From the IMG/VR virus record IMGVR_UViG_3300025889_000082, positions 1 to 41,347 of that record: a stretch of 41,347 nt of DNA; one strand, written 5' to 3'. The notes below the pieces were generated by a model. That model was given only the letters and a program-made list of their open reading frames with translations, made no database searches and was not told the DNA's origin. Every line of letters starts with the position of its first letter. Positions within the stretch are counted from its first letter, which is position 1. Made by a program: the position numbers and the translations under genes. The DNA is from a virus. Below are positions 13,696 through 28,857 of this stretch, in pieces.

Positions 13696-16600
13696 ATGGA
13701 TCCAATTTGCTCTACTGAACCTTGTCCAGTCATACTGAATTCTACCTGCGTATTCTATGAAGGTGCTAATTTGTTGTACACTGGTATCAATACTAATGAC
13801 AGCATCCAAACTGCTCTACAAAAAATAGATGCTAAGTTTCAGGAAGCTGCAATTGGATATTTATTTAATAATGGTGTCTATCAGTCTGGACCAGGATTAC
13901 CTGTAGGACTTGGTGGCACTATGGATCATGACACTATTATTACAGCTGCAGGATTTGATTTAACATATACAGGAGATGTATATGCAGCTAAACATATTAC
14001 AATTGGTGGTACCTCTTCTGATTTTGTTAAGGGAGATGGTAGCTTAGATAGTACAGCATACCAACCAGCAGGTGCTTATATCACAGCACTTACAGGAGAT
14101 GGAACTGCTTCAGGACCTGGTTCTGCATTGTTTACATTAGCAACAGTTAACCCTGCTCCTGCTACCTATGGTTCTGCTACACAAGTTCCTAGATTTACAG
14201 TGGATGGAAAAGGACGTGTTACAAGTGTTACTCCTGTAACAATTGCTGTTCCTTCTGCATCTTTATCTTTTATAGGAGATGTAACAGGTATTGGAACAAC
14301 AGGTTCTCCTGTGACGTTGACATTGGCTACAGTGAACAATGATGTATATGGAAGTAATACTTTCTTAAAGTTTGCTGTGAATGCTAAAGGATTGGTTACA
14401 TCAGCCACTCCTGTTACACATCTTGATATTGAATCTGTGCTTGGATACATACCTGTTCCTAGCACTAGAACATTAACAATCAATGGTGTTGCCTATTCAT
14501 TATCTGCAAATAGAACATGGTCAGTAGGTACCTTGATTTCTGTGGCATTAACAATGCCTCCAGCATTCACTGTACTCACATCTGCAACAGGAACAAATGG
14601 TACAATCAATGTCATAGCTAATGGTTCAGCCTCTCAATATATAAGAGGTGATGGTACTCTTGGTAGCTATTTTGGTACAGCAGGTACATCAGGCTCCAGT
14701 GGTACATCAGGTATATCTGGAGACAAATATAGAACAACATCCACTACACCTTTTACATTAGGTAATAGTGGTACGTTGATTGTAGCAACACAGCTAGGAT
14801 ATAGTGTAGCTCAATCCATCATAGTAGTGTATGATCTTAACAACTTCCAAGAGTGTGAGGTGGTTGCTTATGACTTTAACACTGGTTTATTAGAATTTGC
14901 ATTTCCTACAAGAACTGTAGGAAGTGGTACATATAGTGATTGGACAGTAAACTTAGATGGTGCTAGTGGTGGTAATGGAACTTCTGGAACCTCTGGTTCT
15001 AGTGGTACTACAGGATCTAGTGGCTCTAGTGGAACTGCTGGTACATCTGGCTCTGCTGGTACATCAGGTAGCAGTGGTAGTAGTGGTGTAAGTGGAACCT
15101 TTGGTACATCAGGAACTGATGGTAGCTCTGGCACTTCTGGTTCTTCTGGAACAACTGGTACATCTGGTTCTAGTGGATCTTCAGGTACAAATGGTTCTTC
15201 TGGAACCTCTGGAACATCTGCAAGCTCTGGTAGTTCAGGCACCACTGGTACATCTGGTACTAGTGCAAGCTCTGGTACTTCTGGATCTTCTGGATCTTCT
15301 GGTACAAGTGGAACTAATGGTACGTCTGGTACAGCTGGAACATCAGGGTCATCTGGAACAAGTGGAACAAATGGTAGCTCTGGAACCAGTGGTACATCAG
15401 CTACATCTGGCTCTTCTGGCTCTAGTGGTACATCTGGCTCTAGTGGTACGTCTGGATCAAGTGGTACAAGTGGATCAGCAGGAACAAGTGCTACCTCTGG
15501 AACTTCTGGATCTAGTGGTACGTCTGCTACAAGTGGAAGTTCTGGTAGCTCAGGTACAAGTGGTACGTCTGGTTCATCAGGAACAAGTGCAACAGCAGGT
15601 TCTAGTGGAACCTCTGCAACTAGTGGATCTTCTGGCACTTCTGCTTCTTCAGGCACAAGTGGGTCTTCTGGAACTAGTGGAACAAGTGGAAGTAGTGGTA
15701 CATCAGCAACAAGTGGTACTTCAGGATCATCTGGATCATCTGGAACAAATGGTTCTAGTGGAACAAGTGCTTCCTCAGGTACATCTGGTAGCTCTGCTAC
15801 ATCAGGTACATCTGCTACAAGTGGTTCGTCAGGATCTAGTGGAACCTCTGGTACATCTGGAAGTTCTGGAACGTCAGCTTCAAGTGGTTCTAGTGGAACA
15901 AGTGGAACGTCAGGTTCAAGTGGTACATCAGGTACTAATGGAAGTTCTGGTACAAGTGCTACATCAGGCTCATCAGGTACAAGTGCAACCAGTGGCTCTT
16001 CAGGTACTAGTGGTACAAAGGGTACGTCTGGAACTAGTGGGACAAGTGGAAGCAGTGGATCAAGTGGAACTTCTGCAACTTCAGGATCAAGTGGAACCAG
16101 TGGTACTAATGGATCAAGTGGCACAGCAGGTACATCTGGTACGTCTGCAAGTAGTGGTACTTCAGGTAGTTCTGGCACATCTGGTACAGCAGGAAGCTCT
16201 GGTGTAAGTGGTGTGGCTGGTGGTCTTGTATACTACATGAACTTGTCTACTAATACCAATAGTGCATTTGGTACACCTACATACAAGGAGTGGAGTCCTA
16301 TTGCATCAGGTGCTGCACAACAGACAACTAATATTACATTAGGTGCTTCTGCTAGTGGTACTATTGCAACATTTGCTACAGATAGTGGTGTTCCAGGAGC
16401 AACTGTATTAGAAGCAGGTAACTGGGCTTGGACATTGCACTTCTTATCTAGTGCTGATTCAACATGGGATATAGACGTACATTTATATAAATATACAACA
16501 GGTGGTGTTTCTACAATGTTAGGAAACACAAACAATGTTGTTACAACAATTAGTGGAACTGTAGTAACACAAATCTACATTGACACATTCATTGCATCAC

Positions 16601-19344
16601 AGTCATTGAATTCAACAGATAGACTGTATTGCCAAGTGAACGTAATAAATAATGATAGCGTAAGCAGAACATTAACTCTCTATACAGAAGGAACAAGTTA
16701 TTATTCTTACGCACAAACCACATTCAATCCTCCTAGTGGTACCTCTGGTACATCTGGAGCTAATGGTTCTTCAGGCACCTCTGGAACGTCAGGGTCTTCA
16801 GGTACATCAGCTACCAGTGGTACGTCTGGTTCAAGTGGATCAAGTGGTACAAGTGGAACTAAGGGTACCTCTGGTACATCAGGCACAAGTGGAAGTTCTG
16901 GCACTAGTGGAACGAGTGGTTCTTCTGGTACCAGTGGCTCTAGTGGTACTAGTGGGTCAAGTGGAACAAGTGCTACAAGTGGATCAAGTGGTACATCAGC
17001 AACCTCTGGTTCATCTGGTTCTTCTGGAACATCTGGCACATCAGGATCTTCAGGAACTTCTGCTTCTAGTGGAAGCTCTGGTACGTCTGGCACATCTGGA
17101 TCTAGTGGCACAAGTGCTACTAGTGGATCTAGTGGAACTAGTGGAAGCTCTGGAACAAGTGGGTCTAGTGGCACATCAGCTACATCTGGGTCTTCAGGTA
17201 CAAGTGGAACAAAAGGAACAAGTGGTACAAGTGGTACCAATGGTTCTTCAGGTACAAGTGGTACGTCTGGGTCTTCTGGTACAGCAGGTACAAGTGGTAG
17301 CTCTGGTTCTAGTGGAACATCTGGTTCTAGTGGTACAAGTGCAACATCAGGATCTTCTGGGTCTAGTGGTACTAGTGGCACGAGTGGAAGTAGTGGAACA
17401 TCAGGAACTGATGGAAGCTCAGGTAGTAGTGGTACAAGTGGTTCATCTGGTACATCAGCAACATCAGGCACTTCTGGTTCATCAGGTACTTCAGGTACTA
17501 AGGGGACATCAGGTACATCAGGAGCAAATGGTTCCAGTGGTACTAGTGGTACTAAGGGCACATCTGGAACTAGTGGAACTTCTGGTTCATCAGGAACATC
17601 AGCTACAAGTGGTTCCTCTGGAACATCTGGTACAGATGGTAGTTCTGGGTCTTCTGGAACAAGTGGTACAGATGGTAGTTCTGGTTCAAGTGGTACATCT
17701 GGTACTGATGGTAGCTCAGGTTCATCAGGAACATCTGGAACTTCTGGTTCTTCAGGAACAAGTGGTACTAAAGGAACATCAGGAACTTCTGGAGCTAATG
17801 GTTCTAGTGGTACTTCAGGAACAAAAGGTACATCTGGAACTTCTGGAACTTCAGGCTCTAGTGGAACTGCTGGTACTAGTGGTAGTTCTGGTACAAGTGC
17901 AGCTAATGGAACTTCTGGAACTTCAGGAACTGATGGATCTTCTGGAACTAGTGGTATAAACGCAACTGCAGGAACTAGTGGTGTAAGTGGTTCTAGTGGT
18001 ACTAGTGCTACAGCTGGAACAAGTGGTACCAATGGATCTAGTGGAACTTCTGGTGCCAATGGTGCTGCAGGTAGCAGTGGTACTTCTGGTACGTCAGGAG
18101 CAAATGGTGCTGCTGGGTCTAGTGGTACTAGTGGAACAAAGGGAACATCAGGAACATCTGGAGCTAATGGAGCTGCTGGTTCTTCAGGAACTAGTGGTAC
18201 TAAGGGTACAAGTGGTACAGCAGGAGCCAATGGTGCTAATGGATCTAGTGGAACGTCTGGTGCAGGTACAATCAGTGGTACTACAGGTTATATAGCCAAA
18301 TTTACTAATAGTACAACTGTTGGTAATAGTATTATAAGTGAAAGTGGTACTGTTATATCAGTCGCTGGAAGTTTAACTGCAACAGGTACTGTAACTGGAA
18401 ATGGTGTATCAATTGGTGCAAGTGATGTAAGGTCAAGTAGTAATGTTTTGACATTAGGTGGAACTTCAGAAGTTATTCGTATTGTTGGTTCTACTGGCTT
18501 TGTAGGTGTTGGTACTACTGCACCATCTTATCAATTAGATGTTCAAGTAAATAATGGTTCTTTCACATCAAGAATTAAAAACTTAAACACCACAACTGAT
18601 AACGCAGGTTTAATAGTTAGTGCTGGTGTTAATGCAGGTAATGAAATTATTTTACTTGAGAATGCTGCTGGTACTGATAGATTTACTGTATTTGCAAATG
18701 GGCAGGTGACAATGGTTGGAGCAAACACTACAACTGTTCCTATACTTGGTATAACAGTGTCAGGTTCTGGTGCATTCCAAAGAGGTGTTAGAATGTTAAA
18801 TAGTGGTATGGGTGCTGGGGATAGTTTAATGTATGCAACTGGACAGTCTGATGGTTCTAAAAACATGGGTCAATTCTATTTCTATTATGCTGGTGCAGCA
18901 AGTAATAGTAATAGATTGTCAATGGGATTACATTCTGTTGATGATGTATTTAATATTTTTGGAAGTTCTAACGTAACCATAGGCACAACATCAGATGCAG
19001 GGTATAAACTATATGTTAGTGGCACTATCTACGCAACTGGAGATATCACAGCATCTTCTGATGCCAGATATAAAACAAACATCAGACCAATTGAGAATGC
19101 TTTAGAAAAGATAGTTAGCTCAAGAGGGGTGGTATATGACAGAGTGGATGAAGAGAGCTTTGACAACATTGGATTTATTGCTCAAGAATTGGAGGTGTAT
19201 TTCCCAGAACTAGTTTCTACAGATAACCAAGGATTCAAGGGAGTTAAATACCAAAATGCTGTAGCTGTTCTATTCGAGGGAATCAAAGAACAACAAAAAC
19301 AAATTGAAGAATTAAAAACTTTAATAGATGGCTTTACCAAGTAG
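13696..19344 (+). CDS. Long collagen-like tail fibre with C-terminal S74 (endosialidase-type) autoproteolytic chaperone
   Basis: The 1,882-residue protein starts with a tail-fibre-like head (GINTNDSIQTALQKID, then repeated 'TVDGKGRVTSATPV'-type segments) typical of phage fibres and probably attaching to the tail. Two Gly-X-Y blocks follow, about 140 and 169 triplets, nearly all GTS/GSS, separated by a globular domain around residues 842-1014. After them comes a beta-rich region with APSYQLDV, then the S74 domain (about residues 1785-1882): S1788-D-A-R-Y-K1793 matches the Ser/Lys dyad of intramolecular chaperones, which trimerise the fibre and then cut themselves off just before the serine. 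The C-terminus ends in a coiled coil (EQQKQIEELKTLI). Own promoter with a hairpin leader; the next gene overlaps by 17 nt. No proline occurs in the collagen-like blocks, which is unusual. Confidence 0.9.
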   Translation: MDPICSTEPCPVILNSTCVFYEGANLLYTGINTNDSIQTALQKIDAKFQEAAIGYLFNNGVYQSGPGLPVGLGGTMDHDTIITAAGFDLTYTGDVYAAKHITIGGTSSDFVKGDGSLDSTAYQPAGAYITALTGDGTASGPGSALFTLATVNPAPATYGSATQVPRFTVDGKGRVTSVTPVTIAVPSASLSFIGDVTGIGTTGSPVTLTLATVNNDVYGSNTFLKFAVNAKGLVTSATPVTHLDIESVLGYIPVPSTRTLTINGVAYSLSANRTWSVGTLISVALTMPPAFTVLTSATGTNGTINVIANGSASQYIRGDGTLGSYFGTAGTSGSSGTSGISGDKYRTTSTTPFTLGNSGTLIVATQLGYSVAQSIIVVYDLNNFQECEVVAYDFNTGLLEFAFPTRTVGSGTYSDWTVNLDGASGGNGTSGTSGSSGTTGSSGSSGTAGTSGSAGTSGSSGSSGVSGTFGTSGTDGSSGTSGSSGTTGTSGSSGSSGTNGSSGTSGTSASSGSSGTTGTSGTSASSGTSGSSGSSGTSGTNGTSGTAGTSGSSGTSGTNGSSGTSGTSATSGSSGSSGTSGSSGTSGSSGTSGSAGTSATSGTSGSSGTSATSGSSGSSGTSGTSGSSGTSATAGSSGTSATSGSSGTSASSGTSGSSGTSGTSGSSGTSATSGTSGSSGSSGTNGSSGTSASSGTSGSSATSGTSATSGSSGSSGTSGTSGSSGTSASSGSSGTSGTSGSSGTSGTNGSSGTSATSGSSGTSATSGSSGTSGTKGTSGTSGTSGSSGSSGTSATSGSSGTSGTNGSSGTAGTSGTSASSGTSGSSGTSGTAGSSGVSGVAGGLVYYMNLSTNTNSAFGTPTYKEWSPIASGAAQQTTNITLGASASGTIATFATDSGVPGATVLEAGNWAWTLHFLSSADSTWDIDVHLYKYTTGGVSTMLGNTNNVVTTISGTVVTQIYIDTFIASQSLNSTDRLYCQVNVINNDSVSRTLTLYTEGTSYYSYAQTTFNPPSGTSGTSGANGSSGTSGTSGSSGTSATSGTSGSSGSSGTSGTKGTSGTSGTSGSSGTSGTSGSSGTSGSSGTSGSSGTSATSGSSGTSATSGSSGSSGTSGTSGSSGTSASSGSSGTSGTSGSSGTSATSGSSGTSGSSGTSGSSGTSATSGSSGTSGTKGTSGTSGTNGSSGTSGTSGSSGTAGTSGSSGSSGTSGSSGTSATSGSSGSSGTSGTSGSSGTSGTDGSSGSSGTSGSSGTSATSGTSGSSGTSGTKGTSGTSGANGSSGTSGTKGTSGTSGTSGSSGTSATSGSSGTSGTDGSSGSSGTSGTDGSSGSSGTSGTDGSSGSSGTSGTSGSSGTSGTKGTSGTSGANGSSGTSGTKGTSGTSGTSGSSGTAGTSGSSGTSAANGTSGTSGTDGSSGTSGINATAGTSGVSGSSGTSATAGTSGTNGSSGTSGANGAAGSSGTSGTSGANGAAGSSGTSGTKGTSGTSGANGAAGSSGTSGTKGTSGTAGANGANGSSGTSGAGTISGTTGYIAKFTNSTTVGNSIISESGTVISVAGSLTATGTVTGNGVSIGASDVRSSSNVLTLGGTSEVIRIVGSTGFVGVGTTAPSYQLDVQVNNGSFTSRIKNLNTTTDNAGLIVSAGVNAGNEIILLENAAGTDRFTVFANGQVTMVGANTTTVPILGITVSGSGAFQRGVRMLNSGMGAGDSLMYATGQSDGSKNMGQFYFYYAGAASNSNRLSMGLHSVDDVFNIFGSSNVTIGTTSDAGYKLYVSGTIYATGDITASSDARYKTNIRPIENALEKIVSSRGVVYDRVDEESFDNIGFIAQELEVYFPELVSTDNQGFKGVKYQNAVAVLFEGIKEQQKQIEELKTLIDGFTK
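14959..16218 (+). repeat. Collagen-like Gly-X-Y coding repeat, block 1
   Basis: About 140 consecutive 9-bp units encode GTS, GSS, GTN and related triplets. At intervals the glycine is replaced by alanine (ATS, ASS, ATA). Codons for Ser, Thr and Gly vary constantly, so the DNA repeat is much less regular than the protein repeat. The lack of stop codons in this composition also creates long spurious frames on both strands. Confidence 0.93.
16738..18258 (+). repeat. Collagen-like Gly-X-Y coding repeat, block 2
   Basis: About 169 triplets, similar to block 1 but richer in GTK, GTD and GAN triplets near the 3' end. Higher-order repeats exist: a 12-residue GTD-led unit occurs three times in tandem at 17629-17736. 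A 33-residue stretch beginning GTKGTSGTSGAN at 17494 recurs identically at 17764 with many synonymous differences. Confidence 0.93.
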
Positions 19345-20206: not shown

Positions 20207-20554
20207 ATGAAAGCTTTAGAGTTAAAGTTTGGTAAGGAGAAAATTCAAGGAAGAGAGACATTCTTTTCTACAGCTGACTTATTAAAAGCAGCTATTAATA
20301 ATGTACCTAGAGAAGGAGGTATGGATGTTAAAGAGATGTCTACAAGACTTCGCTTATTAAAGATTGTAGATGCTCACAAAGAGTTTAATATTGAAGAGAA
20401 AGACTTTACAGATTCTTACTTAGCTATCAGAAAGACTGTAGAGTTTGAAGATGCTGACTTTGTAAAGTTGAAAGATTTATTCAATGCTGTGAAGTGGGGT
20501 GTTGTTTCTGAATTCATTATTGAGTTAGGTGAAACATTAGAAAAAACTAAATAA
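20207..20554 (+). CDS. Hypothetical phage protein, 115 residues
   Basis: A soluble, charged, mostly helical protein (MKALELKFGKEKI...) with no membrane segment, signal peptide or catalytic motif that I recognise. Residues about 35-65 (GGMDVKEMSTRLRLLKIVD) and 75-110 look like helical bundles. It has its own promoter and a convergent neighbour whose stop codon overlaps it by 8 nt, so it is a monocistronic unit between the fibre genes and the glycosylation operon. The shape resembles small hypothetical proteins seen in other Bacteroidota phages, but I cannot assign a role. Confidence 0.75.
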   Translation: MKALELKFGKEKIQGRETFFSTADLLKAAINNVPREGGMDVKEMSTRLRLLKIVDAHKEFNIEEKDFTDSYLAIRKTVEFEDADFVKLKDLFNAVKWGVVSEFIIELGETLEKTK

Positions 20555-20562
20555 GTTTTTTC
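20540..20562. terminator. Bidirectional terminator between convergent genes
   Basis: GAAAAAACT at 20540-20548 and AGTTTTTTC at 20554-20562 form a 9-bp stem with a 5-nt loop, with A and T runs that give U-tracts in both directions. It overlaps the stop codons of both convergent genes. The stem is AT-rich, so its strength is uncertain. Confidence 0.55.
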
Positions 20563-21614
20563 ACTTCTTCCAATACATCATTCATAGAAATAGCCTTATG
20601 ACATTCAAAATGTCTAGGGCTATTTTCATTTTCAGGACACCAGTTCCAGTCTCCCTTATTAAACTTAAACAATGGATTGTTCCAACATCCATGGCACACA
20701 TTCTTATTAGTGATTCTTATACAACTAAACTCATGGTCTTCTTCTGTGAAGTTAGATATCATCACTGTCTCTTTACCAACAGCCCAGTTTAACCAGCTGA
20801 TGCCACTAGATAGTCCTATATATGCCTTTGCATAATATAGATAGTTCATTACATTGTTTAAGGAAGTGTCTGTAAGTTTGATTGCACCTAAGTCATCAGC
20901 TTCTTGAGACATCTCAATCACTTTATATCCCATTGATTGTAGCTCACTGATAAGCTCTTTCCAATAATACCAATGTTTACATTGTGCTGTAGATCTTGTA
21001 GATATGCAAATATATCTATCTTCTATAGGACGTGTTGGTGTAAAAGCTATCCTAGGTTGTATTTCTCTATGCTTTAGATTTAATATATTAGAAGCTGCTT
21101 GTTGTAATGGTATAGTGGCAGGATGTATAGGTTCTTTATTACTATCCCAGAACCATCCTATTTCAAACATTGCTATGAGGTTATCTACTCTCACCCCTCT
21201 ACCTACAAACTTAAGCTCAGGATATACAGACTCAAACAGTTCATTCTTGAATGTAGATACTATGACATCACATTGGTATACATTCTTAAACTCTAAACAG
21301 TATGGTATCCAAGCAATGCTGTCTCCCAATGAACTAGATTCAAAAGATATAAACACACGCTTACCTTTTATTTCATCTAACAGATTGATTTGCTTAATGG
21401 TGCGTCCTTGATACTTAATGAATATAGCTATGTCTGATAGATATTTTCTGCTAAGCTTAGCCCAACTTCCTGGTCTCATCTTCACTTCATATATAATCTC
21501 ACTCTTTGATGTAGTTGTATCTACAAACACTACATCATACTCTCTGTTCTTGCCCTCATCTCCTAGTAACTCAAAGTGCAAACCATGGACATGTGTTAAA
21601 TTATAAGTTACCAT
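20547..21614 (-). CDS. TibC/BAHT-like protein O-heptosyltransferase
   Basis: The 355-residue protein matches bacterial autotransporter O-heptosyltransferases (TibC, Aah family). Visible motifs are FESSSLGDSIAWIPY (residues 91-105), STRSTAQCKHWYYWKE in the nucleotide-sugar-binding half, a GLSSGISWLNWA segment, and the C-terminal cysteine set C307, C310, C326, C338 within CHGC ... GDWNWCP ... FEC. In TibC four such cysteines bind an iron ion and the enzyme puts heptose on serines of a beta-helical surface protein. Here it ends the - strand operon, overlapping the GT4 gene by 14 nt. A natural substrate would be a Ser-rich phage protein such as the nearby fibre; a host surface protein is the alternative. 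The donor sugar is not deducible. Confidence 0.8.
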   Translation of the reverse strand: MVTYNLTHVHGLHFELLGDEGKNREYDVVFVDTTTSKSEIIYEVKMRPGSWAKLSRKYLSDIAIFIKYQGRTIKQINLLDEIKGKRVFISFESSSLGDSIAWIPYCLEFKNVYQCDVIVSTFKNELFESVYPELKFVGRGVRVDNLIAMFEIGWFWDSNKEPIHPATIPLQQAASNILNLKHREIQPRIAFTPTRPIEDRYICISTRSTAQCKHWYYWKELISELQSMGYKVIEMSQEADDLGAIKLTDTSLNNVMNYLYYAKAYIGLSSGISWLNWAVGKETVMISNFTEEDHEFSCIRITNKNVCHGCWNNPLFKFNKGDWNWCPENENSPRHFECHKAISMNDVLEEVKKLI

Positions 21615-22623
21615 ATGCTTCTATGTATAATTGTTTTGTTATTTCAGATGTGTATTCTTTACCTATTATACGAACGTTGTCGTAATATTTCTTTAATATC
21701 TTACACACTTCCAACCAGCTTCTACTTTTACGTGCATTTAGCATTTCTTTTCTTCTGTGGTCATAGGTTTTAATTGTTTCTTCTATACCTGTAATAACAG
21801 CAGCTGTACTAATTTCAGGTATCACCCACATACCATCCATATGTCTACTTCCTTTGTAAGTTCCCACAATGGGAATAGCACATGCTGTGGCTTCCATAAG
21901 TGTTAGGTTAGGATGGCCTGCTTCTAGCATAGATGGATGTAAGAATATATCATGTGTTTGATATAGCTCTCTCATCTCTTCATCTGTAGGATTTGTTAAC
22001 TTTAAAGTTAACTTTGGATAGTCTAATAAGTCTTTATGAATTTCAAAGAACTTTTGGTTATCAGGATGACCAGCTATAGTGATAGGAAGATTCAACTGCT
22101 TAGCTGCTTCTATACCATATCTAAATCCTTTTCTATCAAACCCACTGTCTCCACCTAGTCCATTGTTAGCTATCATCAATAGTGCATATTCAAATGTAGT
22201 TGTGAAAGCATAGTTTGGTGTAAAGAAATCTGTATCTGCACCATGTGGTAGGTAGAACAACTTATCCACTGTATCAAAGTAGTCTATTAAATACTCAGCA
22301 TGTGTAAAGGATATAATACTTCCTTTCATAGCTTCTACATTCTGATTGTACACCCAGCTATCTTTACCATACCATTCTGTGTGGTGGTCATGTAGTGAAT
22401 AGATATAAGGGATGCCTCTATCTTTACAGTCTAGAGCTAAGTTAGCAAGATGTACATGTACTATCTGGTCAGGCTTTTTCTCCACCTGATTGATATATTG
22501 TATATCAACAGTTTCTCCTAGTTGTTCTAGTCCTTGTTTATATGCCCATATAAGTCTTTCTACAGCACCCCAACCATTTGGTGGGATGGTAATTAATCCT
22601 GTGGCTACTTGTACTATCCCCAT
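21601..22623 (-). CDS. Glycosyltransferase family 4-like protein
   Basis: This 340-residue GT-B protein begins VQVATGLITIPPNGWGAVERLIW, the usual GT4 acceptor-side start with a Gly-rich loop. The N-terminal half holds IVHVHLANLAL and YIYSLHDHH. The C-terminal half holds ITIAGHPDN, LYQTHDIFLHPSMLEAGHPNLTLMEATACAIPIVGT, which is the GT4 E-x(7)-E-type donor-binding region. It transfers a sugar from a nucleotide donor; donor and acceptor cannot be read from sequence. It overlaps both neighbours (14 nt and 10 nt), so it is co-translated within the operon. Confidence 0.85.
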   Translation of the reverse strand: MGIVQVATGLITIPPNGWGAVERLIWAYKQGLEQLGETVDIQYINQVEKKPDQIVHVHLANLALDCKDRGIPYIYSLHDHHTEWYGKDSWVYNQNVEAMKGSIISFTHAEYLIDYFDTVDKLFYLPHGADTDFFTPNYAFTTTFEYALLMIANNGLGGDSGFDRKGFRYGIEAAKQLNLPITIAGHPDNQKFFEIHKDLLDYPKLTLKLTNPTDEEMRELYQTHDIFLHPSMLEAGHPNLTLMEATACAIPIVGTYKGSRHMDGMWVIPEISTAAVITGIEETIKTYDHRRKEMLNARKSRSWLEVCKILKKYYDNVRIIGKEYTSEITKQLYIEAYGNL

Positions 22624-23306
22624 TTTCTTTCAAATTTAATTTTGTCTTCCTCCATTTTCTTAATGCTTTCAGGAGTGAGCTTGGTTATATTTACGCTCCT
22701 TAAATGACAAACAATAGAATCTTTTACCAAGGCATGTTTAATACCATGTTTCATCAACATTCTTGCATAGTCATTGTCTTGGTAATACATATCAAACTGC
22801 TCATCAAAAGGACTAATCTTATCTAGTGCTTCCTTTTTAATAACTAAACACCAACCCATCACTGCTTCATGTACAGTGTAGTCTTCAAAGTACTTAGATG
22901 GACTATCTATAAAATGCCAATCAAAAAACCTTATATATAATGCAGGATCTTTTGGAGAGAAAGAATGTATGTCTGGTCTTTCTTTACTAATAGCCATTAT
23001 TTCAGATAGCCAGTTCTTCTCATAACCTACATCATTGTTAGATATGATAACCCATTCTGATGTTACATAGTTCATAGCAATGTTAATAAACTTGTTATAG
23101 TTAAATGGTTCATTAGGCTTAATGTAATTGGCTACTATTTGTGTTTCAAGATAGTCTTTTGTATAGTCATCTCCTGACTCCACTAAGTGTATCTTGAACT
23201 TATATCCTATTTCACTATCACGTAGGGTGTATATAGTTCTTAAAGTCATTCTAAGATTCTTTTCAGTCTTAGTATTTGTAAGTATGATTACGTCTATTGT
23301 TTGCAT
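22614..23306 (-). CDS. Glycosyltransferase family 2-like protein
   Basis: A 230-residue GT-A protein: IDVIILTNTKTEKNLRMTLRTI at the start, the DxD-equivalent SNND at residues 89-92, and GWCLVIKKEALDKISPFDEQF with a following YQDNDYARMLMKHG, as in rhamnosyl- and related transferases of GT2. It lacks membrane segments, so it acts in the cytoplasm. It sits between the methyltransferase and the GT4 gene, 2 nt and -10 nt away. Confidence 0.85.
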   Translation of the reverse strand: MQTIDVIILTNTKTEKNLRMTLRTIYTLRDSEIGYKFKIHLVESGDDYTKDYLETQIVANYIKPNEPFNYNKFINIAMNYVTSEWVIISNNDVGYEKNWLSEIMAISKERPDIHSFSPKDPALYIRFFDWHFIDSPSKYFEDYTVHEAVMGWCLVIKKEALDKISPFDEQFDMYYQDNDYARMLMKHGIKHALVKDSIVCHLRSVNITKLTPESIKKMEEDKIKFERKWG

Positions 23307-23308
23307 GT

Positions 23309-23860
23309 TTATTTTTTTAATAGTCCCCAGAAGTATAAATCACAGCTATTCTCATCTACATAGAAATGATGTGCAGCAAAATACTTATCTAAATCTATAG
23401 CTGCTCTTACATCTAATTCTGTAACATTCATATAATACCCAGCCCAATCTTCTTCTTGTATTGTGAATGGACTATCTTGTGGATCAAATATACTAGTTCC
23501 ATGTGTAGGTCTTCCTGTCGTAGCACATGTAAATAAAAACAATCCTCCTGGACGTAATAGATTATCTATAACATTCTGGATAGTTTCCTTCCAATACATA
23601 TCATGTTCAAACACTTCTGTGCTTATAACAGTGTCATACTTTTTACCATCTATAGGTCTGTATTCATGTCCTTTACTTACAACATTTACATTTCTACCCT
23701 TACCAATATCTATACCAATATAGGAATAGTCTTCAAATAGATAGTGATTGTTACCATTTAAGTCTAGTGAACCAATGTCACAGACATTTACATTATTGAA
23801 ATACTCAGGAAAGATTTGTTTTACAAAGTTGCAAAATGCTTGCTCTGCTGGATGTGCCAT
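23309..23860 (-). CDS. Class I SAM-dependent methyltransferase
   Basis: The 183-residue protein has motif I as VCDIGSLDLNGN (residues 26-37), YIGIDIGKGRNVNVV as the acidic strand-2 motif, YDTVISTEVFEHDMYW near residues 75-90 and LLRPGGLFLFTC near 101-112: a complete Methyltransf_11-type Rossmann fold. It probably methylates a sugar being built by the surrounding transferases, perhaps as a cap. It is one base from the neighbouring GT gene and 2 nt from the GT2 gene. Confidence 0.85.
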   Translation of the reverse strand: MAHPAEQAFCNFVKQIFPEYFNNVNVCDIGSLDLNGNNHYLFEDYSYIGIDIGKGRNVNVVSKGHEYRPIDGKKYDTVISTEVFEHDMYWKETIQNVIDNLLRPGGLFLFTCATTGRPTHGTSIFDPQDSPFTIQEEDWAGYYMNVTELDVRAAIDLDKYFAAHHFYVDENSCDLYFWGLLKK

Positions 23861-23861
23861 A

Positions 23862-24848
23862 TTAGTTTAATTTAATTGTTCCCTTTTCTTTAAACAGGGA
23901 TAAGTTTTGGTTGGTTAATGTAAATTTCTTAGACAAAAATAAGTATTTTTTATCAATGTCATACACTTCTACACGTATTTCTTCTCCATCTAATTTGTAT
24001 GTATTGAACCAGTAGTGTCCTTTACCTAATATCTGTGTTTGTGTTAGTTCATTATTCTTGTAAATGTCAACATGTTTCCACTCTTCTAGTATAAGTGTAT
24101 TCATTATAAATAGAACAGGCTCTTCTGGAACCACCTCATTATACAATAGCTCACAGTTAAAGAGTCCATATCTAAGCACATTCACATCACTGTCTGTGAA
24201 GATGTTAGAGCTATGGTCATGTACTAGTAAGAACTGGTCTTCATGTTTACTAAACTGTTCGTAGAAAGATAGTTCTAATGTATAGCCCATAGGAATTCTT
24301 AACCACTCGTGTACATCTAATGGAGGTTGGAATGTATATAGGAAGTAGTCTAGATTACCACCAAACAATAAGGTTTCATATACATAAGAACCTTCACAGT
24401 CCCTATACTCCTCAGGTCTAAAGAATAACATCTTCTTACCCAAGCCACCCATTTCATCCATCAGTCCAACTAGTTTTGCTGCATCAGGTTGAGATAGAAG
24501 AACATCACACTCTGTAAATACAAACTCATCATAGCCCATTGCTTTTGCTAGGTTCATTCCAGCTCTCATGTTTCTGCATATAGGTAGTGTGTGTCCTGCA
24601 TTAAATATATTTATAATATATTCATCTGTTTGAAACCACCAGTTGGGAGTGTATGTAGGGGGGAGGAAGGTGTTGTTGCTATCATAGATGGTATATTGCA
24701 CCTTTTCAGCAGTGGCTTTATCAATTGGCAAATGAGCTACAATCATAATATCCCACCCTGTATGTTTGAATCCATCTATACATCTGTTAAGAATATCTAT
24801 CTCTCTTTGACCAGATGGATAACAATCTATAATAGCTATTCTTTTCAT
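23862..24848 (-). CDS. GT-A-like putative glycosyltransferase
   Basis: This 328-residue protein starts MKRIAIIDCYPSGQREIDILNRCIDGFKHTGWDIMIVAHLPID and contains MGYDEFVFTECDVLLSQP, where ECDV takes the place of a DxD metal site. The same layout (IIIGTYPN ... IMLVSHYPVDDET ... YKRVFYNTYDVVVDSKD) occurs in the middle module of the upstream 883-residue protein, so the two are paralogous. The C-terminal 80 residues are beta-rich. It overlaps the upstream gene by 4 nt (ATGA). A glycosyltransferase is the best guess; family unassigned. Confidence 0.65.
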   Translation of the reverse strand: MKRIAIIDCYPSGQREIDILNRCIDGFKHTGWDIMIVAHLPIDKATAEKVQYTIYDSNNTFLPPTYTPNWWFQTDEYIINIFNAGHTLPICRNMRAGMNLAKAMGYDEFVFTECDVLLSQPDAAKLVGLMDEMGGLGKKMLFFRPEEYRDCEGSYVYETLLFGGNLDYFLYTFQPPLDVHEWLRIPMGYTLELSFYEQFSKHEDQFLLVHDHSSNIFTDSDVNVLRYGLFNCELLYNEVVPEEPVLFIMNTLILEEWKHVDIYKNNELTQTQILGKGHYWFNTYKLDGEEIRVEVYDIDKKYLFLSKKFTLTNQNLSLFKEKGTIKLN

Positions 24849-27496
24849 TTCTTTCTAAATGATTTTTCCATGTTGTCTATTAAGGAGAATCCATCTGCTT
24901 GGGTAGTAAGTCTTTCGTACACAATACCCATCTTTTGGTTGTTAAATATAATGTTGAAATACATATCTGCAGCATCCCAAGGTTCTTTACGTAATGTTTC
25001 TTTCAACCATGGAGCTATATGTATAGGGAACATAATTGATTGTAAACCAATGATATGATCTGTTTCATACATTACATCATTAATCTTTCTCACCTCAGGG
25101 CTTTGTGGCCAGCCATGTTCTAATGTATCTTTATCTCCAAAGGACATGAATTCAATATTGTTAATAATCATTTCATGTGCACAGCTTTCCACAGTGGATA
25201 TGAAGTGTTCAATTGGTGCTTCAATAATACAATCACCTTCACACACCATCAAGAAATCACAGTCATGGAATTCACTTAGGATGGCATCTCTGAATGCTTG
25301 GTAGCATCCATAATGTGCTGGGGTAAGTGCAGTGCCATACTGTTGAACTTGCTGTTCATTGAAGAGTTCCATTGAAACACAAAAGGGCCTGATGCAGTTG
25401 TGCTCAGGTGGTAATGATCTGTAGGGATAGTTAAGATGTAATTTGTATTCCCATCCATGGTCTCTAACTCTTTCAAGGGATGCTCTGCTAGCTTGTTCTC
25501 TTTCATCGTTTAATGTAGTTTGTATATGAACTAATTTAATTCTAGGTCTTTCTTTCTTCTTAAATTCAAACCTACCTGTGCTTTGATACTTATCTAAATT
25601 GTCCTTATGTAGGGTGTGTTTTTCTATCTTGTAGCAATGGTCTCCATCATAGAAGTCTAGTTGTATATCAATAGGCTCTCCCTTAAATACAAAAGGATAC
25701 ATCCATTCTCTAGTCTTAGCCACCTGTATTCTCTTATCTATATCACCAATAGTAACATATATAGTTCTATGGTCTACATTATATGTAAAGAAATAGAACA
25801 TATAATTGTTTGGTTTTCCAACAATTGGTATAATAGAATAATATTCACTGTTAGAAGATGTGCCTAAGCCACTATGAACCAATAAGGTTTCTTGTTCATT
25901 GGTGATTATTTCTGTATTATCATCAGTGATTCTCTTTGATAGATAGTCTTCTAGGAAGTTATGAGCTCCTATCCACTCACAGATTCTGTTGTATTCTTGT
26001 GGATCTGTAGCGTCATCAAATGTCTTCAAGAAATAATCTACATCATACATCATTCCATTGGTCTGAATTCCCTTACCCATAGGTGTAGGGAGGGTAGCTA
26101 CATATGCGTTCTTACCAGAGGATAATGCTTTTTCAATAACATCTAAATCTTTACTATCTACCACCACATCATATGTATTGTAGAACACTCTCTTATATCC
26201 ATTCTGTTTAGCAGCTTTCATTCCATTGAATATATTAACTAACACTGTAAGGGACTGGTTGGTATCCTTCAATCCATTGATATTAATCTCAGCATAGTAG
26301 TTAGGAGTATCATTATAAAACCTAGTGTAATAGCTATGATGAGTGAGTGGGTTGTTCTTGTCATATACATAATAGTCTACCATGCGTTGTGTCTCATCGT
26401 CTACAGGATAGTGACTTACTAACATAATCTTTCTACCTAAGGGCTTCATAGATTGTATTGTACGTTTTGTAAGACTAACTCTTTCCTTCAGATTGGGATA
26501 GGTACCTATGATGATAAGTTCCTCATCTAATCTGTTGAGATTTAGACGTATCATAATATTAACTAAATCAAAAGAAACATCTCCTGTTAGATACATAACA
26601 TCTTCCTGTCCATTATACTTATTACAATACACATCTAGATTATACATCATCTTAATTAAGTCAGGATACTCCATGGCTTCTTTGATGGCTATAGGGTTTA
26701 GTTCCTTATTGCCTCTGTCTCCTTTGGATGGGAAGAAGAACACATCACATGCCTGTAAGAATTCAGATACATCATTACGTTCTCCCCAGACAACACAATT
26801 ATCTGGTTTGTTATTCATCAATGGTTCCCAATAGTCTTTAAAGTTGTCTGCTTGGTTACCTAGGAAATGAAACTTCACCTTATACTTCTCCAAGTGCTTA
26901 GCTATTTCAAAAGCATAGGCTTGGTTCTTTCTTGGAGTGAACAATCCCACTATAGCAAAGTGTTTATATGCAGGATCTAAGCCTAGTTTATTCTGCATCT
27001 CTATTTTGTTACGCTCTTTCTTATCTATAGGGTATTCAATAATCTCTGTTGGAACAGGTAAGTTTACATATTTAAAAGCATTGTATGCACTAACAAATAT
27101 AAATTTATCAGGTAGATAGTATTTATGTTTAGGATTGAAAGAACTATCATGTGTAGTTTCTACTATCTTCCAAGGTTTTTTTAAATCATACAAGTAGTCT
27201 GCAGATTGTCTATCTAAGAACATCTCTGGAAACTCTTCCATAGCTATTACATCTGGTTGCCAGTTCTCTACCACTCTTGTAAGCTCTTCATACTTGTTCT
27301 CTCCTAGGGATATAAAGTTGTTAACTCCTACTAGTTCTATAATTCTATTTCTTTGCACTACAAAGTTCCATGCTATGAATGCATGTTCTATCACTAATAT
27401 ATCAAACACATCCTTAAGAAGTGCTATCTTATTCACTGTTACCTGAGGGGCTCCTCCTGTTGATAGATGAGGAGTGATTACTAATAGTTTTTTCAT
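24845..27496 (-). CDS. Three-module glycosyltransferase (GT4-like + GT-A-like + GT25-like)
   Basis: I place the start at ATG 27496 (MKKLLVITPHLSTGGAPQV), because it makes an ATGA overlap with the upstream gene's stop; this gives 883 residues. Residues 1-330 are a GT-B/GT4-like module (THDSSFNPKHKYYLPDKFIFVS, FAIVGLFTPRKNQAYAFEIA, FLQACDVFFFPS). Residues about 330-620 resemble the next gene's product, with NTYDVVVDS as candidate metal site. Residues about 640-883 carry LTPAHYGCYQAFRDAI and DFLMVCEGDCII, similar to the 'GAVGCFLSH ... ALILEDD' layout of GT25 enzymes. A single polypeptide could add successive sugars. It is the second gene of the operon. Module families are assigned by eye. Confidence 0.75.
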   Translation of the reverse strand: MKKLLVITPHLSTGGAPQVTVNKIALLKDVFDILVIEHAFIAWNFVVQRNRIIELVGVNNFISLGENKYEELTRVVENWQPDVIAMEEFPEMFLDRQSADYLYDLKKPWKIVETTHDSSFNPKHKYYLPDKFIFVSAYNAFKYVNLPVPTEIIEYPIDKKERNKIEMQNKLGLDPAYKHFAIVGLFTPRKNQAYAFEIAKHLEKYKVKFHFLGNQADNFKDYWEPLMNNKPDNCVVWGERNDVSEFLQACDVFFFPSKGDRGNKELNPIAIKEAMEYPDLIKMMYNLDVYCNKYNGQEDVMYLTGDVSFDLVNIMIRLNLNRLDEELIIIGTYPNLKERVSLTKRTIQSMKPLGRKIMLVSHYPVDDETQRMVDYYVYDKNNPLTHHSYYTRFYNDTPNYYAEININGLKDTNQSLTVLVNIFNGMKAAKQNGYKRVFYNTYDVVVDSKDLDVIEKALSSGKNAYVATLPTPMGKGIQTNGMMYDVDYFLKTFDDATDPQEYNRICEWIGAHNFLEDYLSKRITDDNTEIITNEQETLLVHSGLGTSSNSEYYSIIPIVGKPNNYMFYFFTYNVDHRTIYVTIGDIDKRIQVAKTREWMYPFVFKGEPIDIQLDFYDGDHCYKIEKHTLHKDNLDKYQSTGRFEFKKKERPRIKLVHIQTTLNDEREQASRASLERVRDHGWEYKLHLNYPYRSLPPEHNCIRPFCVSMELFNEQQVQQYGTALTPAHYGCYQAFRDAILSEFHDCDFLMVCEGDCIIEAPIEHFISTVESCAHEMIINNIEFMSFGDKDTLEHGWPQSPEVRKINDVMYETDHIIGLQSIMFPIHIAPWLKETLRKEPWDAADMYFNIIFNNQKMGIVYERLTTQADGFSLIDNMEKSFRKK

Positions 27497-28431
27497 ATAA
27501 GTCTGGATATTATATTTATAACGTGTTCTACAGATGGATGGCATTCAAATGTTTCTTTCTTCTCTAAGCATCCAATTAGAGGTTGTACAGAGTCTATAGT
27601 GTCCCAATACTCAAGAGCATATTTCATGTTAGAGCTGCAATGTAATCCACAGCTTCCTCCAATATATTCATGTCTCCACCCCTGCTCTCCATATCTATAA
27701 GGAGTTCTAAACTCAGGATTGATAGCTGATCCTAATTCAAATATTAATGTTTCAGTGGTGGCTGCTAGATGTAGAATACCAGAGTCCATAGTGACTACAG
27801 CTGTAGAATTGTTAAGGATGTACCAAGTTTCAGATATGGATGTCTGATTCATTAGGTTGATGATGTTGGTGTTTCCTAATTCATGTACAGGTTTGTTTAC
27901 ATTAAAGAAACCTGTCTCAGAACTATCTTTACCTATGGCAACCACTTTGTATCCCAGCTCAATTAACTTTTCAGATAGTTTAAGCCAATTATCTTGAGAC
28001 CAAGTTCTATTAGGCCAGCTGTTAACAGGATGTATCACTACATATTTACCTGATATATTGTTAACCATTTGTTCTGTTGGTCTATAGAAACAATCCATCT
28101 CATCTCTTCTAAGCATAAATCCTAAATGAATTGCATGGAACTGCCTGATATCCATCATGTTATGCTTCATTTCTACACCTCTCTCATCCTTCTTACCTAC
28201 CAAATAGAATGAATTATGAACAATGTAATTACTTTGTATATACTCCATGTCTATAGAGCTGTTCTTATAGCTCTTCTCTACATAAGGATTCATCTTAAAT
28301 AACTCAGGCATCTGAGACAGTATAGTTATCTTTCTACCATAGCTTTCAGATAGTTTTTTGATGGTGGGAGTAGCACAAATAAGGTCCCCAAGACCATTAC
28401 ATTCTGATAAGTTTAAACAAACTGGTTTCAT
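27493..28431 (-). CDS. Glycosyltransferase family 9 (heptosyltransferase-like)
   Basis: The 312-residue protein shows the GT9 pattern: GLGDLICATPTIKKL (residues 13-27), VVIHPVNSWPNRTWSQDNW (131-149), and TMDSGILHLAATT (214-226), which is the conserved nucleotide-sugar-binding region. GT9 enzymes transfer ADP-heptose or related sugars. It is the promoter-proximal gene of the - strand operon, about 11 nt from the predicted transcript start, and pairs well with the distal TibC-like transferase that also belongs to the heptosyltransferase world. Actual donor is unproven. Confidence 0.85.
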   Translation of the reverse strand: MKPVCLNLSECNGLGDLICATPTIKKLSESYGRKITILSQMPELFKMNPYVEKSYKNSSIDMEYIQSNYIVHNSFYLVGKKDERGVEMKHNMMDIRQFHAIHLGFMLRRDEMDCFYRPTEQMVNNISGKYVVIHPVNSWPNRTWSQDNWLKLSEKLIELGYKVVAIGKDSSETGFFNVNKPVHELGNTNIINLMNQTSISETWYILNNSTAVVTMDSGILHLAATTETLIFELGSAINPEFRTPYRYGEQGWRHEYIGGSCGLHCSSNMKYALEYWDTIDSVQPLIGCLEKKETFECHPSVEHVINIISRLI

Positions 28432-28433
28432 TG

Positions 28434-28464
28434 TTGTTTATTTTCAACAAAGTTACTATATTTG
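28434..28464 (+). promoter_or_regulatory. Bacteroidota-type promoter for the DUF6165-like gene
   Basis: TTG at 28434-28436, 20-nt spacer, TATATTTG at 28457-28464. The expected transcript start, near 28470, leaves about 19 nt before ATG 28489. It overlaps the opposing promoter at 28448-28478. Confidence 0.7.
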
Positions 28465-28478
28465 TGGGGAATATTCAA
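28448..28478 (-). promoter_or_regulatory. Bacteroidota-type promoter for the glycosylation operon
   Basis: On the - strand, TTG at 28478-28476, a 20-nt spacer and TAACTTTG at 28455-28448. The transcript would start near 28442, some 11 nt before the GT9 start codon (28431). It shares 17 bp with the opposing + strand promoter. Confidence 0.7.
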
Positions 28479-28488
28479 CAAATTTTTT

Positions 28489-28857
28489 ATGCAAATAGAA
28501 GTAAGTATTGGAGAAATAGTGGACAAATGGACCATTCTTTCTATCAAAGCCCTAAATATTACAGACAAAGATAAGTTAGTCAATGTATTTAAAGAACGTA
28601 ACTATCTAAATACCATCATAGATCCTGAGGTTTTACATGATTCTTTAACAGATAGTTTGCTCACAGTAAACAAAAGACTCTGGGATGTAGAGGATAGACT
28701 CAGAGATTGTGAAAGAAGCAAGGTGTTTGATGACCACTTTGTACAACTAGCCAGATCTGTTTATATGTTGAATGACAAGCGAGCACATATTAAAAAAGAA
28801 ATTAATATTAAGTGGGGATCTGACTTTATAGAGGAGAAATCCTACCAGCCATACTAG
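28489..28857 (+). CDS. DUF6165-like protein
   Basis: The product from ATG 28489 has 122 residues. An upstream TTG at 28462 is in frame but lies inside the promoter's TATATTTG, so I reject it. The start, IEVSIGEIVDKWTILSIKALNITDKDKLVNV, matches the DUF6165 pattern (I-x-V-x-IGE-xx-DK-x-TIL-xIK). DUF6165 members are often found beside glycan-synthesis genes, and here the gene is transcribed divergently from a seven-gene glycosylation operon. The rest is helical and charged, with no membrane segment. Biochemical role is unknown. Confidence 0.7.
   Translation: MQIEVSIGEIVDKWTILSIKALNITDKDKLVNVFKERNYLNTIIDPEVLHDSLTDSLLTVNKRLWDVEDRLRDCERSKVFDDHFVQLARSVYMLNDKRAHIKKEINIKWGSDFIEEKSYQPY

What the first reader, a model, noticed from the sequence alone, without database searches (positions are those of the whole stretch)
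20547..28431. Seven-gene glycosylation operon with a TibC-like protein O-heptosyltransferase beside a Ser/Thr-rich fibre
GT9, a three-module GT, a GT-A-like protein, a methyltransferase, GT2, GT4 and a TibC/BAHT homologue with its four-cysteine C-terminal set form one operon. TibC-type enzymes attach heptose to serines of surface proteins. The only obvious Ser-rich substrates nearby are the phage fibres. A phage that builds its own methyl-capped glycan on its receptor-binding rod could evade host recognition or alter adsorption.
Basis: partly seen in the sequence, partly recalled or inferred. Interest (0 to 1): 0.8.

Follow-up and report, generated by a model that had tools for sequence, protein, structure and literature searches.

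The report
Phage sugar-coating operon for collagen-like fibres
A water-borne crAss-like phage carries its own seven-gene sugar-attachment operon beside a tail-fibre gene whose rod is a serine/threonine-rich, collagen-like repeat, and the same kind of enzyme sits next to the same kind of repeat in unrelated phages and in bacteria, so these enzymes probably glycosylate collagen-like rods.

Summary
The seven-gene operon is real, at the stated coordinates. The 20547-21614 product is a true TibC relative: NCBIfam TIGR04414 at 232 bits against a cut-off of 200, and PDB TibC at E=2e-44. The catalytic Asp and all four iron-finger Cys are present, but the adenine-contact Arg286 is not, so heptose as donor is unproven.

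The neighbouring 'Ser-rich fibre' is a collagen-like Gly-X-Y rod with 262 clean triplets, mostly GTS and GSS, no proline among the common residues, and an S74 tip.

The link between enzyme and rod is much stronger than the finder could know:
- 17 of 20 TibC-bearing regions from other viruses hold a Ser/Thr-rich collagen gene, against 0 of 11 antipodal control regions.
- TIGR04414 occurs in 19 of 50 viruses picked only for such collagen, against 0 of 30 controls.
- One crAss-like clade lacks both operon and rod, although the fibre ends remain.
- Methanotroph bacteria repeat the pairing (7 of 8), while classical members sit beside autotransporter-type repeats.

Most likely the operon O-glycosylates the phage's own collagen-like fibres. 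The glycan, its donor and its purpose are inferred. A host-surface role is not excluded. Best filed as a new, collagen-directed variant of bacterial autotransporter heptosyltransferase (BAHT)-type glycosylation.

The parts
20547..21614 (-). TibC/BAHT-like protein O-glycosyltransferase (GT-B, GT9 clan)
   Evidence: TIGR04414 232.4 bits > cut-off 200; PDB 4rap/4rb4 E 2e-44; D98 (=D110), T209 (=T226), K213 (=K230), W274 (=W305) and four Cys conserved; R286 position is V255
21601..22623 (-). GT4 glycosyltransferase; fused to the TibC domain in several relatives
   Evidence: PF00534 2.9e-9; GT4 and TibC domains in one ORF in L032, L043 and Microcystis phage Mel-JY01
22614..23306 (-). GT2 glycosyltransferase
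   Evidence: PF00535 2.2e-6; phrog_22332 3.7e-13
23309..23860 (-). SAM-dependent methyltransferase, candidate sugar O-methyltransferase
   Evidence: PF13489 7e-7; phrog_32762 2.6e-45; present in only some relatives
23862..24848 (-). Putative GT-A-like glycosyltransferase, paralogue of the middle module of the next gene
   Evidence: No Pfam family; aligns with residues 300-560 of the three-module protein, 22% identity
24845..27496 (-). Three-module glycosyltransferase: GT4 N-module plus two modules with the look of tandem GT-A domains (the ORF as listed opens at 27544; the start at 27496 gives an ATGA overlap)
   Evidence: PF00534 1.5e-9; model pLDDT 82, pTM 0.55; Foldseek to GT4 BshA/HepE and, weakly by TM-score, to collagen galactosyltransferase COLGALT1 (E 8e-10, TMt 0.27) and LH3
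27493..28431 (-). GT9 (heptosyltransferase-like) glycosyltransferase
   Evidence: PF01075 2.7e-15; TIGR02195 43 bits, far below cut-off; PDB 1psw WaaF E 8e-6
28462..28857 (+). DUF6165 protein, probable accessory gene of the same system
   Evidence: PF19662 3e-9; in 18 of 30 TibC-positive records and 0 of 16 true negatives; directly adjacent to TibC in several lineages
13696..19344 (+). Collagen-like Ser/Thr-rich tail fibre with S74 intramolecular-chaperone C-terminus: proposed acceptor
   Evidence: PF01391 5.5e-102, PF13884 1.7e-12; 262 triplets, GTS 121 and GSS 88
36556..37665 (+). Second, shorter Ser/Thr-rich collagen-like protein (20 triplets): possible further acceptor
   Evidence: PF01391 6.1e-7; composition. 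A third, 1541 aa with 235 triplets, lies outside the window at G000:88631-93256

Best explanation
The operon is a phage-encoded protein O-glycosylation system for the phage's own collagen-like fibres. The TibC-type enzyme attaches the first sugar to serines (perhaps also threonines) of the Gly-X-Ser rod. The GT9, GT4, GT2 and three-module transferases extend the chain, and the methyltransferase may cap it. Such a coat would hydrate and stabilise a proline-free triple helix, and may also change adsorption or shield the fibre. Shown here: gene identities, conserved catalytic and metal residues, and very strong genomic linkage and joint absence with Ser/Thr-rich collagen rods across unrelated viruses and bacteria. 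Inferred: the enzymatic reaction, the sugar donor (ADP-heptose or another nucleotide sugar), the order of action, and the benefit.
For: Homology to TibC with D110, T226, K230, W305 and all four Cys conserved in all 39 phage and bacterial sequences examined. Collagen-like Ser/Thr-rich fibre beside it. Of 46 viral loci fetched by the TibC-like gene alone, 31 hold a collagen ORF with at least 60% Ser+Thr in the X/Y positions, usually convergent and within a few kb. Reverse test: of 50 viral records picked only by a GTSGSSGTSGTSG DNA pattern, 19 have TIGR04414, against 0 of 30 records picked by an unrelated helicase motif (Fisher 3e-5). Position test in those genomes: Ser/Thr-rich collagen in 17 of 20 regions of 20 kb around TibC, against 0 of 11 antipodal regions (Fisher 4e-6). 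Natural deletion: crAss-like relatives G007, G013 and G014 keep the fibre's N-terminal region at 59-62% identity (and in G007 the S74-like end), but have no collagen rod, none of the seven operon genes, and only 21-27 low-Ser/Thr triplets elsewhere, whereas all 12 near-complete TibC-positive relatives have extensive collagen. Bacterial replication: among 151 Methylococcaceae genomes, 7 of 8 divergent TIGR04414 genes (303-327 bits) adjoin a GTS-type Gly-X-Y gene, with an apparent signal sequence in the two read; 0 of 4 classical loci (654-663 bits) do, and two of those adjoin SLS/AIDA-type repeats. The tree needs several phage/bacterium changes, so the pairing is not one inherited block.
Against: No glycoproteomic data. 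R286, conserved and needed in the characterised TibC family (PMC4358343), is Val, so the donor may not be ADP-heptose. TibC was shown to modify Ser but not Thr on beta-helical autotransporters (PMC4358343), not on Gly-X-Y repeats. Half of the 24 Ser/Thr-collagen records of 60 kb or more have no TIGR04414 match, so such rods can exist without a cis-encoded enzyme. The crAss-like loss is one clade, hence one event. One TibC-positive huge phage (LR756504) has no collagen match. GT operons in phages are also used to alter host surface glycans.
Confidence: 0.75

Rival explanations
1. Host-surface modifier: the operon alters LPS, capsule or S-layer of the infected cell to block superinfection, and lies near the fibre genes because host-recognition genes cluster.
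For: GT9, GT4 and GT2 families are typical of LPS synthesis; papers on aquatic phages usually propose this role (PMC7029224, PMC10202952).
Against: The transferase scoring over its family cut-off belongs to a protein-glycosylating family, not an LPS one. Presence of the operon follows the collagen rod, not merely the fibre slot: G007, G013 and G014 have fibre but neither rod nor operon. In methanotroph chromosomes the same enzyme sits alone beside a Gly-X-Y repeat gene.
Confidence: 0.13
2. Mixed role: only the TibC-like enzyme acts on the fibre, while the other transferases act elsewhere (host glycans, nucleic acid or other virion proteins).
For: Bacterial pairs have only the TibC-like gene without the other transferases; operon content varies between relatives.
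Against: GT4 and other modules are fused in one polypeptide with the TibC domain in several viruses, which points to one glycan; tight overlapping operon.
Confidence: 0.3
3. Linkage without function: both gene types belong to a fast-recombining host-recognition island of aquatic phages, so co-occurrence is hitch-hiking.
For: Collagen-like and fibre genes lie in hypervariable islands in other phages (PMC10202952); relatedness among records inflates counts; the crAss-like loss is a single event.
Against: The same pairing in methanotroph genomes and in distant viruses (Microcystis phage, 735-kb phage, 60-436 kb records) with several phage/bacterium changes in the enzyme tree; classical members switch partner to autotransporter-type repeats.
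Confidence: 0.08

Closest known systems
TibC / AAH bacterial autotransporter heptosyltransferases (BAHT, TIGR04414; PMC4358343)
   Same: Same fold family with over-cut-off profile score, catalytic Asp, phosphate-binding Thr/Lys, heptose-contact Trp, four-Cys iron finger; acts (by analogy) on Ser in a long repetitive surface protein encoded next door
   Different: Partner is a Gly-X-Y collagen-like rod, not a beta-helical autotransporter; Arg286 replaced; phage-encoded and embedded in a multi-transferase operon or fused to other transferases
Mimivirus L230 collagen hydroxylase/glucosyltransferase (reviewed in PMC4691112)
   Same: A virus glycosylates its own collagen-like proteins
   Different: L230 hydroxylates lysine and adds glucose to hydroxylysine; here the acceptor would be Ser/Thr in a bacteriophage fibre and the enzyme is of TibC type
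BclA collagen-like glycoprotein of Bacillus spores (PMC8968730)
   Same: Bacterial collagen-like rod that is glycosylated, with the sugar thought to support the hydration network of the helix
   Different: BclA glycosylation is not known to me to use a TIGR04414 enzyme; this rod is proline-poor and dominated by GTS/GSS triplets
Mycobacteriophage virion glycosylation (Freeman et al. 2023, as cited in PMC12619734)
   Same: Phage virion proteins carry glycans
   Different: Capsid and tail-tube C-termini rather than collagen-like fibres; no TibC-type enzyme is mentioned in the passage read

Membership tests
BAHT / TIGR04414 (TibC, AAH) | Profile score above curated cut-off (200 bits) | tested here: met
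   232.4 bits, nearly full length
BAHT / TIGR04414 (TibC, AAH) | Catalytic base Asp110 and sugar/phosphate contacts Thr226, Lys230, Trp305 | tested here: met
   D98, T209, K213, W274; invariant in 39 sequences
BAHT / TIGR04414 (TibC, AAH) | Arg286 adenine contact, needed for activity in TibC | tested here: not met
   V255 in the window protein; V/I/T/A or other in most relatives, R in some bacterial ones
BAHT / TIGR04414 (TibC, AAH) | Four-cysteine iron finger | tested here: met
   C307, C310, C326, C338 aligned to C339, C342, C358, C370
BAHT / TIGR04414 (TibC, AAH) | N-terminal TibC beta-barrel domain (PF21129) | tested here: inconclusive
   No hit at E 0.1 in the window protein, weak hit in the Microcystis phage homologue (5e-4); N-terminus aligns across relatives
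BAHT / TIGR04414 (TibC, AAH) | Partner autotransporter with strand-loop-strand repeats | tested here: not met
   The neighbouring gene is a collagen-like S74 fibre, not an autotransporter; SLS-type repeats found only beside classical members
BAHT / TIGR04414 (TibC, AAH) | Heptosyltransferase activity and dodecamer | not testable with these tools
   Needs biochemistry
Collagen-like protein (PF01391) | Gly-X-Y repeats over cut-off | tested here: met
   334 bits, E 5.5e-102; 262 triplets
Collagen-like protein (PF01391) | Actual triple helix | not testable with these tools
   Needs CD or structure
crAss-like phages (Crassvirales) | Portal and terminase homology to crAss-like phages | tested here: met
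   Portal tblastn gives crAss-like cr*_1 genomes over nearly full length at 24-26% identity; phrog_6547 portal, phrog_6681 terminase, phrog_11589 head protein. No formal tree with reference families was made

The most novel reading that the evidence does not exclude
The broad TIGR04414-like family, in phages and bacteria alike, consists mainly of O-glycosyltransferases for proline-poor Gly-X-Ser/Thr collagen-like rods, with the TibC/AAH autotransporter enzymes as a specialised offshoot. The added sugar does for these rods what hydroxyproline does for animal collagen.
Probability: 0.45. Interest if true: 0.87.

Novelty: new variant of a known kind. Interest (0 to 1): 0.74.

Why it matters
If right, it names the modifying enzyme for the widespread GTS/GSS collagen-like fibres of aquatic phages, and shows that phages carry dedicated protein-glycosylation operons for their fibres. 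It would also offer a concrete answer to how proline- and hydroxyproline-free collagens in bacteria and phages could be stable, and it widens a family known only from bacterial adhesins. It is directly testable with one enzyme and one repeat peptide.

Tried and rejected
HldD (ADP-heptose epimerase) in 52 records: none over cut-off; only G016, a fragment whose own TibC would lie beyond the contig end, has a half-length gene that fits the heptose epimerase model best (112 bits over half the model). HldE, GmhA and GmhB were not searched. DUF6165 fold: all-helical, pLDDT 88, no significant PDB match. A sequence profile of module 3 and of the GT-A-like gene against PDB found nothing, so the Foldseek match of the three-module protein to COLGALT1/LH3 (E 8e-10 but TM-score 0.27, rmsd 17) is only suggestive. 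A single-sequence genome-contig scan found no bacterial relative; the alignment-based one found 20. Genome-wide PF01391 presence in Methylococcaceae is noisy (54 of 151); adjacency was used instead. Promoter and terminator scans were at background level. Large minus-strand ORFs opposite the collagen gene (14868-16178, 16707-18230) are antisense shadows of the repeat and were dismissed. The literature search for 'collagen-like' plus 'heptosyltransferase' gave one paper, by title on Cronobacter autoaggregation, with one mention of each term.
Full report
WHAT IS THERE. The window is bases 1-41347 of a 105,347-base virus record. The portal matches crAss-like genomes over nearly its full length at 24-26% identity, with phrog matches for terminase, portal and major head protein, so this is a crAss-like phage; the closest viral contigs share a portal at 81-100% identity. 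On the minus strand, 28431 down to 20547, seven ORFs overlap or abut: GT9, three-module GT, GT-A-like protein, methyltransferase, GT2, GT4, TibC homologue. The three-module gene most likely starts at 27496, giving an ATGA overlap. Downstream, converging with the operon, lies the fibre 13696-19344. It is a collagen-like protein (PF01391, E 5.5e-102) ending in an S74 chaperone. The rod has 262 clean Gly-X-Y triplets; X is Thr 155 and Ser 90, Y is Ser 212, with no proline among the common residues. The phage has two more such proteins, at 36556-37665 and at 88631-93256 of the record.

IS THE TibC CALL RIGHT. Yes as homology: 232.4 bits to TIGR04414 (cut-off 200) and E 2.2e-44 to the TibC crystal sequence. 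The eLife 2014 paper (PMC4358343) gives the test residues. D110, T226, K230, W305 and the four iron-finger Cys are kept in all 20 viral and 19 genome-collection sequences aligned; R286, which contacts adenine and whose loss abolishes or greatly reduces TibC activity, is Val here and varies elsewhere. So it probably works like TibC, but the donor nucleotide must be treated as open. It fails two tested features of the autotransporter family (R286, autotransporter partner) and I do not file it as a BAHT proper.

IS THE FIBRE THE SUBSTRATE. Five lines of genomic evidence follow.

(1) Of 46 viral loci found through the TibC-like gene alone, 31 contain a collagen ORF with at least 60% Ser/Thr in X/Y. 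Most of the rest are cut off close to the gene or belong to the divergent 33-38% identity set, where collagen was found elsewhere in four of the five records searched.

(2) The reverse test: 50 large viral records picked only by a GTSGSSGTSGTSG-encoding DNA pattern contain TIGR04414 in 19 cases (18 over cut-off), against 0 of 30 picked by a helicase motif (Fisher 3e-5). The controls are smaller on average; restricted to about 60 kb and up the figures are 12 of 24 against 0 of 7, p 0.02.

(3) Within those genomes, 17 of 20 regions of 20 kb around TibC hold a Ser/Thr-rich collagen ORF, against 0 of 11 antipodal regions (p 4e-6). Two records are near-duplicates, so there are 10 independent paired genomes, sign test 0.001.

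(4) Among near-complete crAss-like relatives chosen by portal, 12 of 12 TibC-positive records have 9 or more collagen matches. Three lack TibC (G007, G013, G014); they have only 21-27 Gly-X-Y triplets with 5-7% Ser/Thr in another gene. Those three carry the homologous fibre in the same slot (N-terminal 59-62% identity; S74-like end read in G007) without a collagen rod, and none of the seven operon genes. The portal tree makes this one clade nested among positives, so one event. Two further TibC-negative records (G012, G016) have Ser/Thr-rich collagen close to a contig end and DUF6165; they are consistent with truncation but are not counted.

(5) Bacteria: relatives recovered from genome contigs have a collagen-like ORF nearby in 15 of 20 loci, though several are phage contigs. 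In 151 Methylococcaceae genomes TIGR04414 is bimodal: eight genomes at 303-327 bits, seven of which have a GTS-type Gly-X-Y gene next door, and three genomes (four loci) at 654-663 bits with none, two of those four having SLS/AIDA-type repeats next door. The two methanotroph repeat proteins read in full begin with a signal-like sequence. The enzyme tree requires several phage-bacterium changes, so the pairing is kept in separate lineages, including Microcystis phage Mel-JY01 and a 735-kb phage.

MECHANISM. Most likely the TibC-like enzyme starts an O-glycan on Ser (TibC modified Ser and not Thr, PMC4358343) in the rod, and the other transferases elongate it; fusion of GT4 and other modules with the TibC domain in several viruses suggests one pathway. 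The methyltransferase could cap the glycan, but only some relatives have it; others carry a sulfotransferase-like, an APS-kinase-like and a nucleotidyltransferase-like gene close by. The three-module protein's second and third modules gave a Foldseek hit to the human collagen galactosyltransferase COLGALT1 (E 8e-10), but with TM-score 0.27 and no profile support, so this is only a lead. Why glycosylate: the rod lacks the proline that usually stabilises a triple helix, and sugar on a bacterial collagen is thought to support the hydration network (BclA, reviewed in PMC8968730). Stabilisation is therefore my favoured benefit, with shielding or adsorption tuning as alternatives. No data here decide.

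LIMITS. Everything is sequence evidence. Half of the large Ser/Thr-collagen records lack a recognisable TIGR04414 gene, so other enzymes or unmodified rods exist. Records are related to one another and mostly incomplete, so the p-values are guides, not corrected for phylogeny. The host, sugar, occupancy and purpose are unknown.

VERDICT. Observation confirmed; interpretation right in its core and incomplete in its details. New variant of a known kind (BAHT-type protein O-glycosylation redirected to collagen-like rods), of real interest because the pairing is general rather than local.

Noticed in passing
window 28462-28857; G054:95311-95679; G091:13382-13747: DUF6165 gene tracks the TibC-like gene (18 of 30 TibC-positive records, 0 of 16 true negatives) and is often immediately adjacent; predicted all-helical with no PDB fold match. 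Candidate accessory factor of the glycosylation system.
   Followed up: partly
L175:680-2323 (G016), L007:11291-12920, L012:11264-13689: Relatives carry a sulfotransferase-like, an APS-kinase-like and an adenylyltransferase-like gene in or beside the glycosylation island, suggesting sulfated glycans in some of these phages.
   Followed up: partly
L175:2-490 (G016): Half of a gene that fits the ADP-glyceromanno-heptose 6-epimerase model far better than other epimerase models, at the contig end near a Ser/Thr-rich collagen fibre: a hint that heptose is the sugar in that relative.
   Followed up: partly
L202:739-2298 (PP395634.1, WWT39287.1): Microcystis phage Mel-JY01 'hypothetical protein' is the antisense of a 1016-codon collagen-like Ser/Thr-rich ORF on the other strand; probable mis-annotation hiding the fibre gene.
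   Followed up: yes
L354:8923-9783, L360:11214-11924 and similar: Methanotroph chromosomes encode proteins with a signal-like N-terminus and GTS-type repeats next to a divergent TIGR04414 enzyme; function unknown.
   Followed up: partly
window 24845-26599: Modules 2-3 of the three-module transferase resemble tandem GT-A domains of human collagen galactosyltransferase COLGALT1 and LH3 by Foldseek E-value but with poor global superposition.
   Followed up: partly
G000:42703-43383 (L048:1703-2383): A further GT2 glycosyltransferase gene outside the operon in the same phage.
   Followed up: no
window 31460-33148: 562-aa protein with a weak cohesin-like domain (PF00963, 1.9e-5), conserved in relatives; unusual for a phage.
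   Followed up: no
G083 (436 kb), G054, G052 and G068 viral records: Some viruses carry two TIGR04414-type genes, in G054 and G083 far apart, possibly for different fibres.
   Followed up: no
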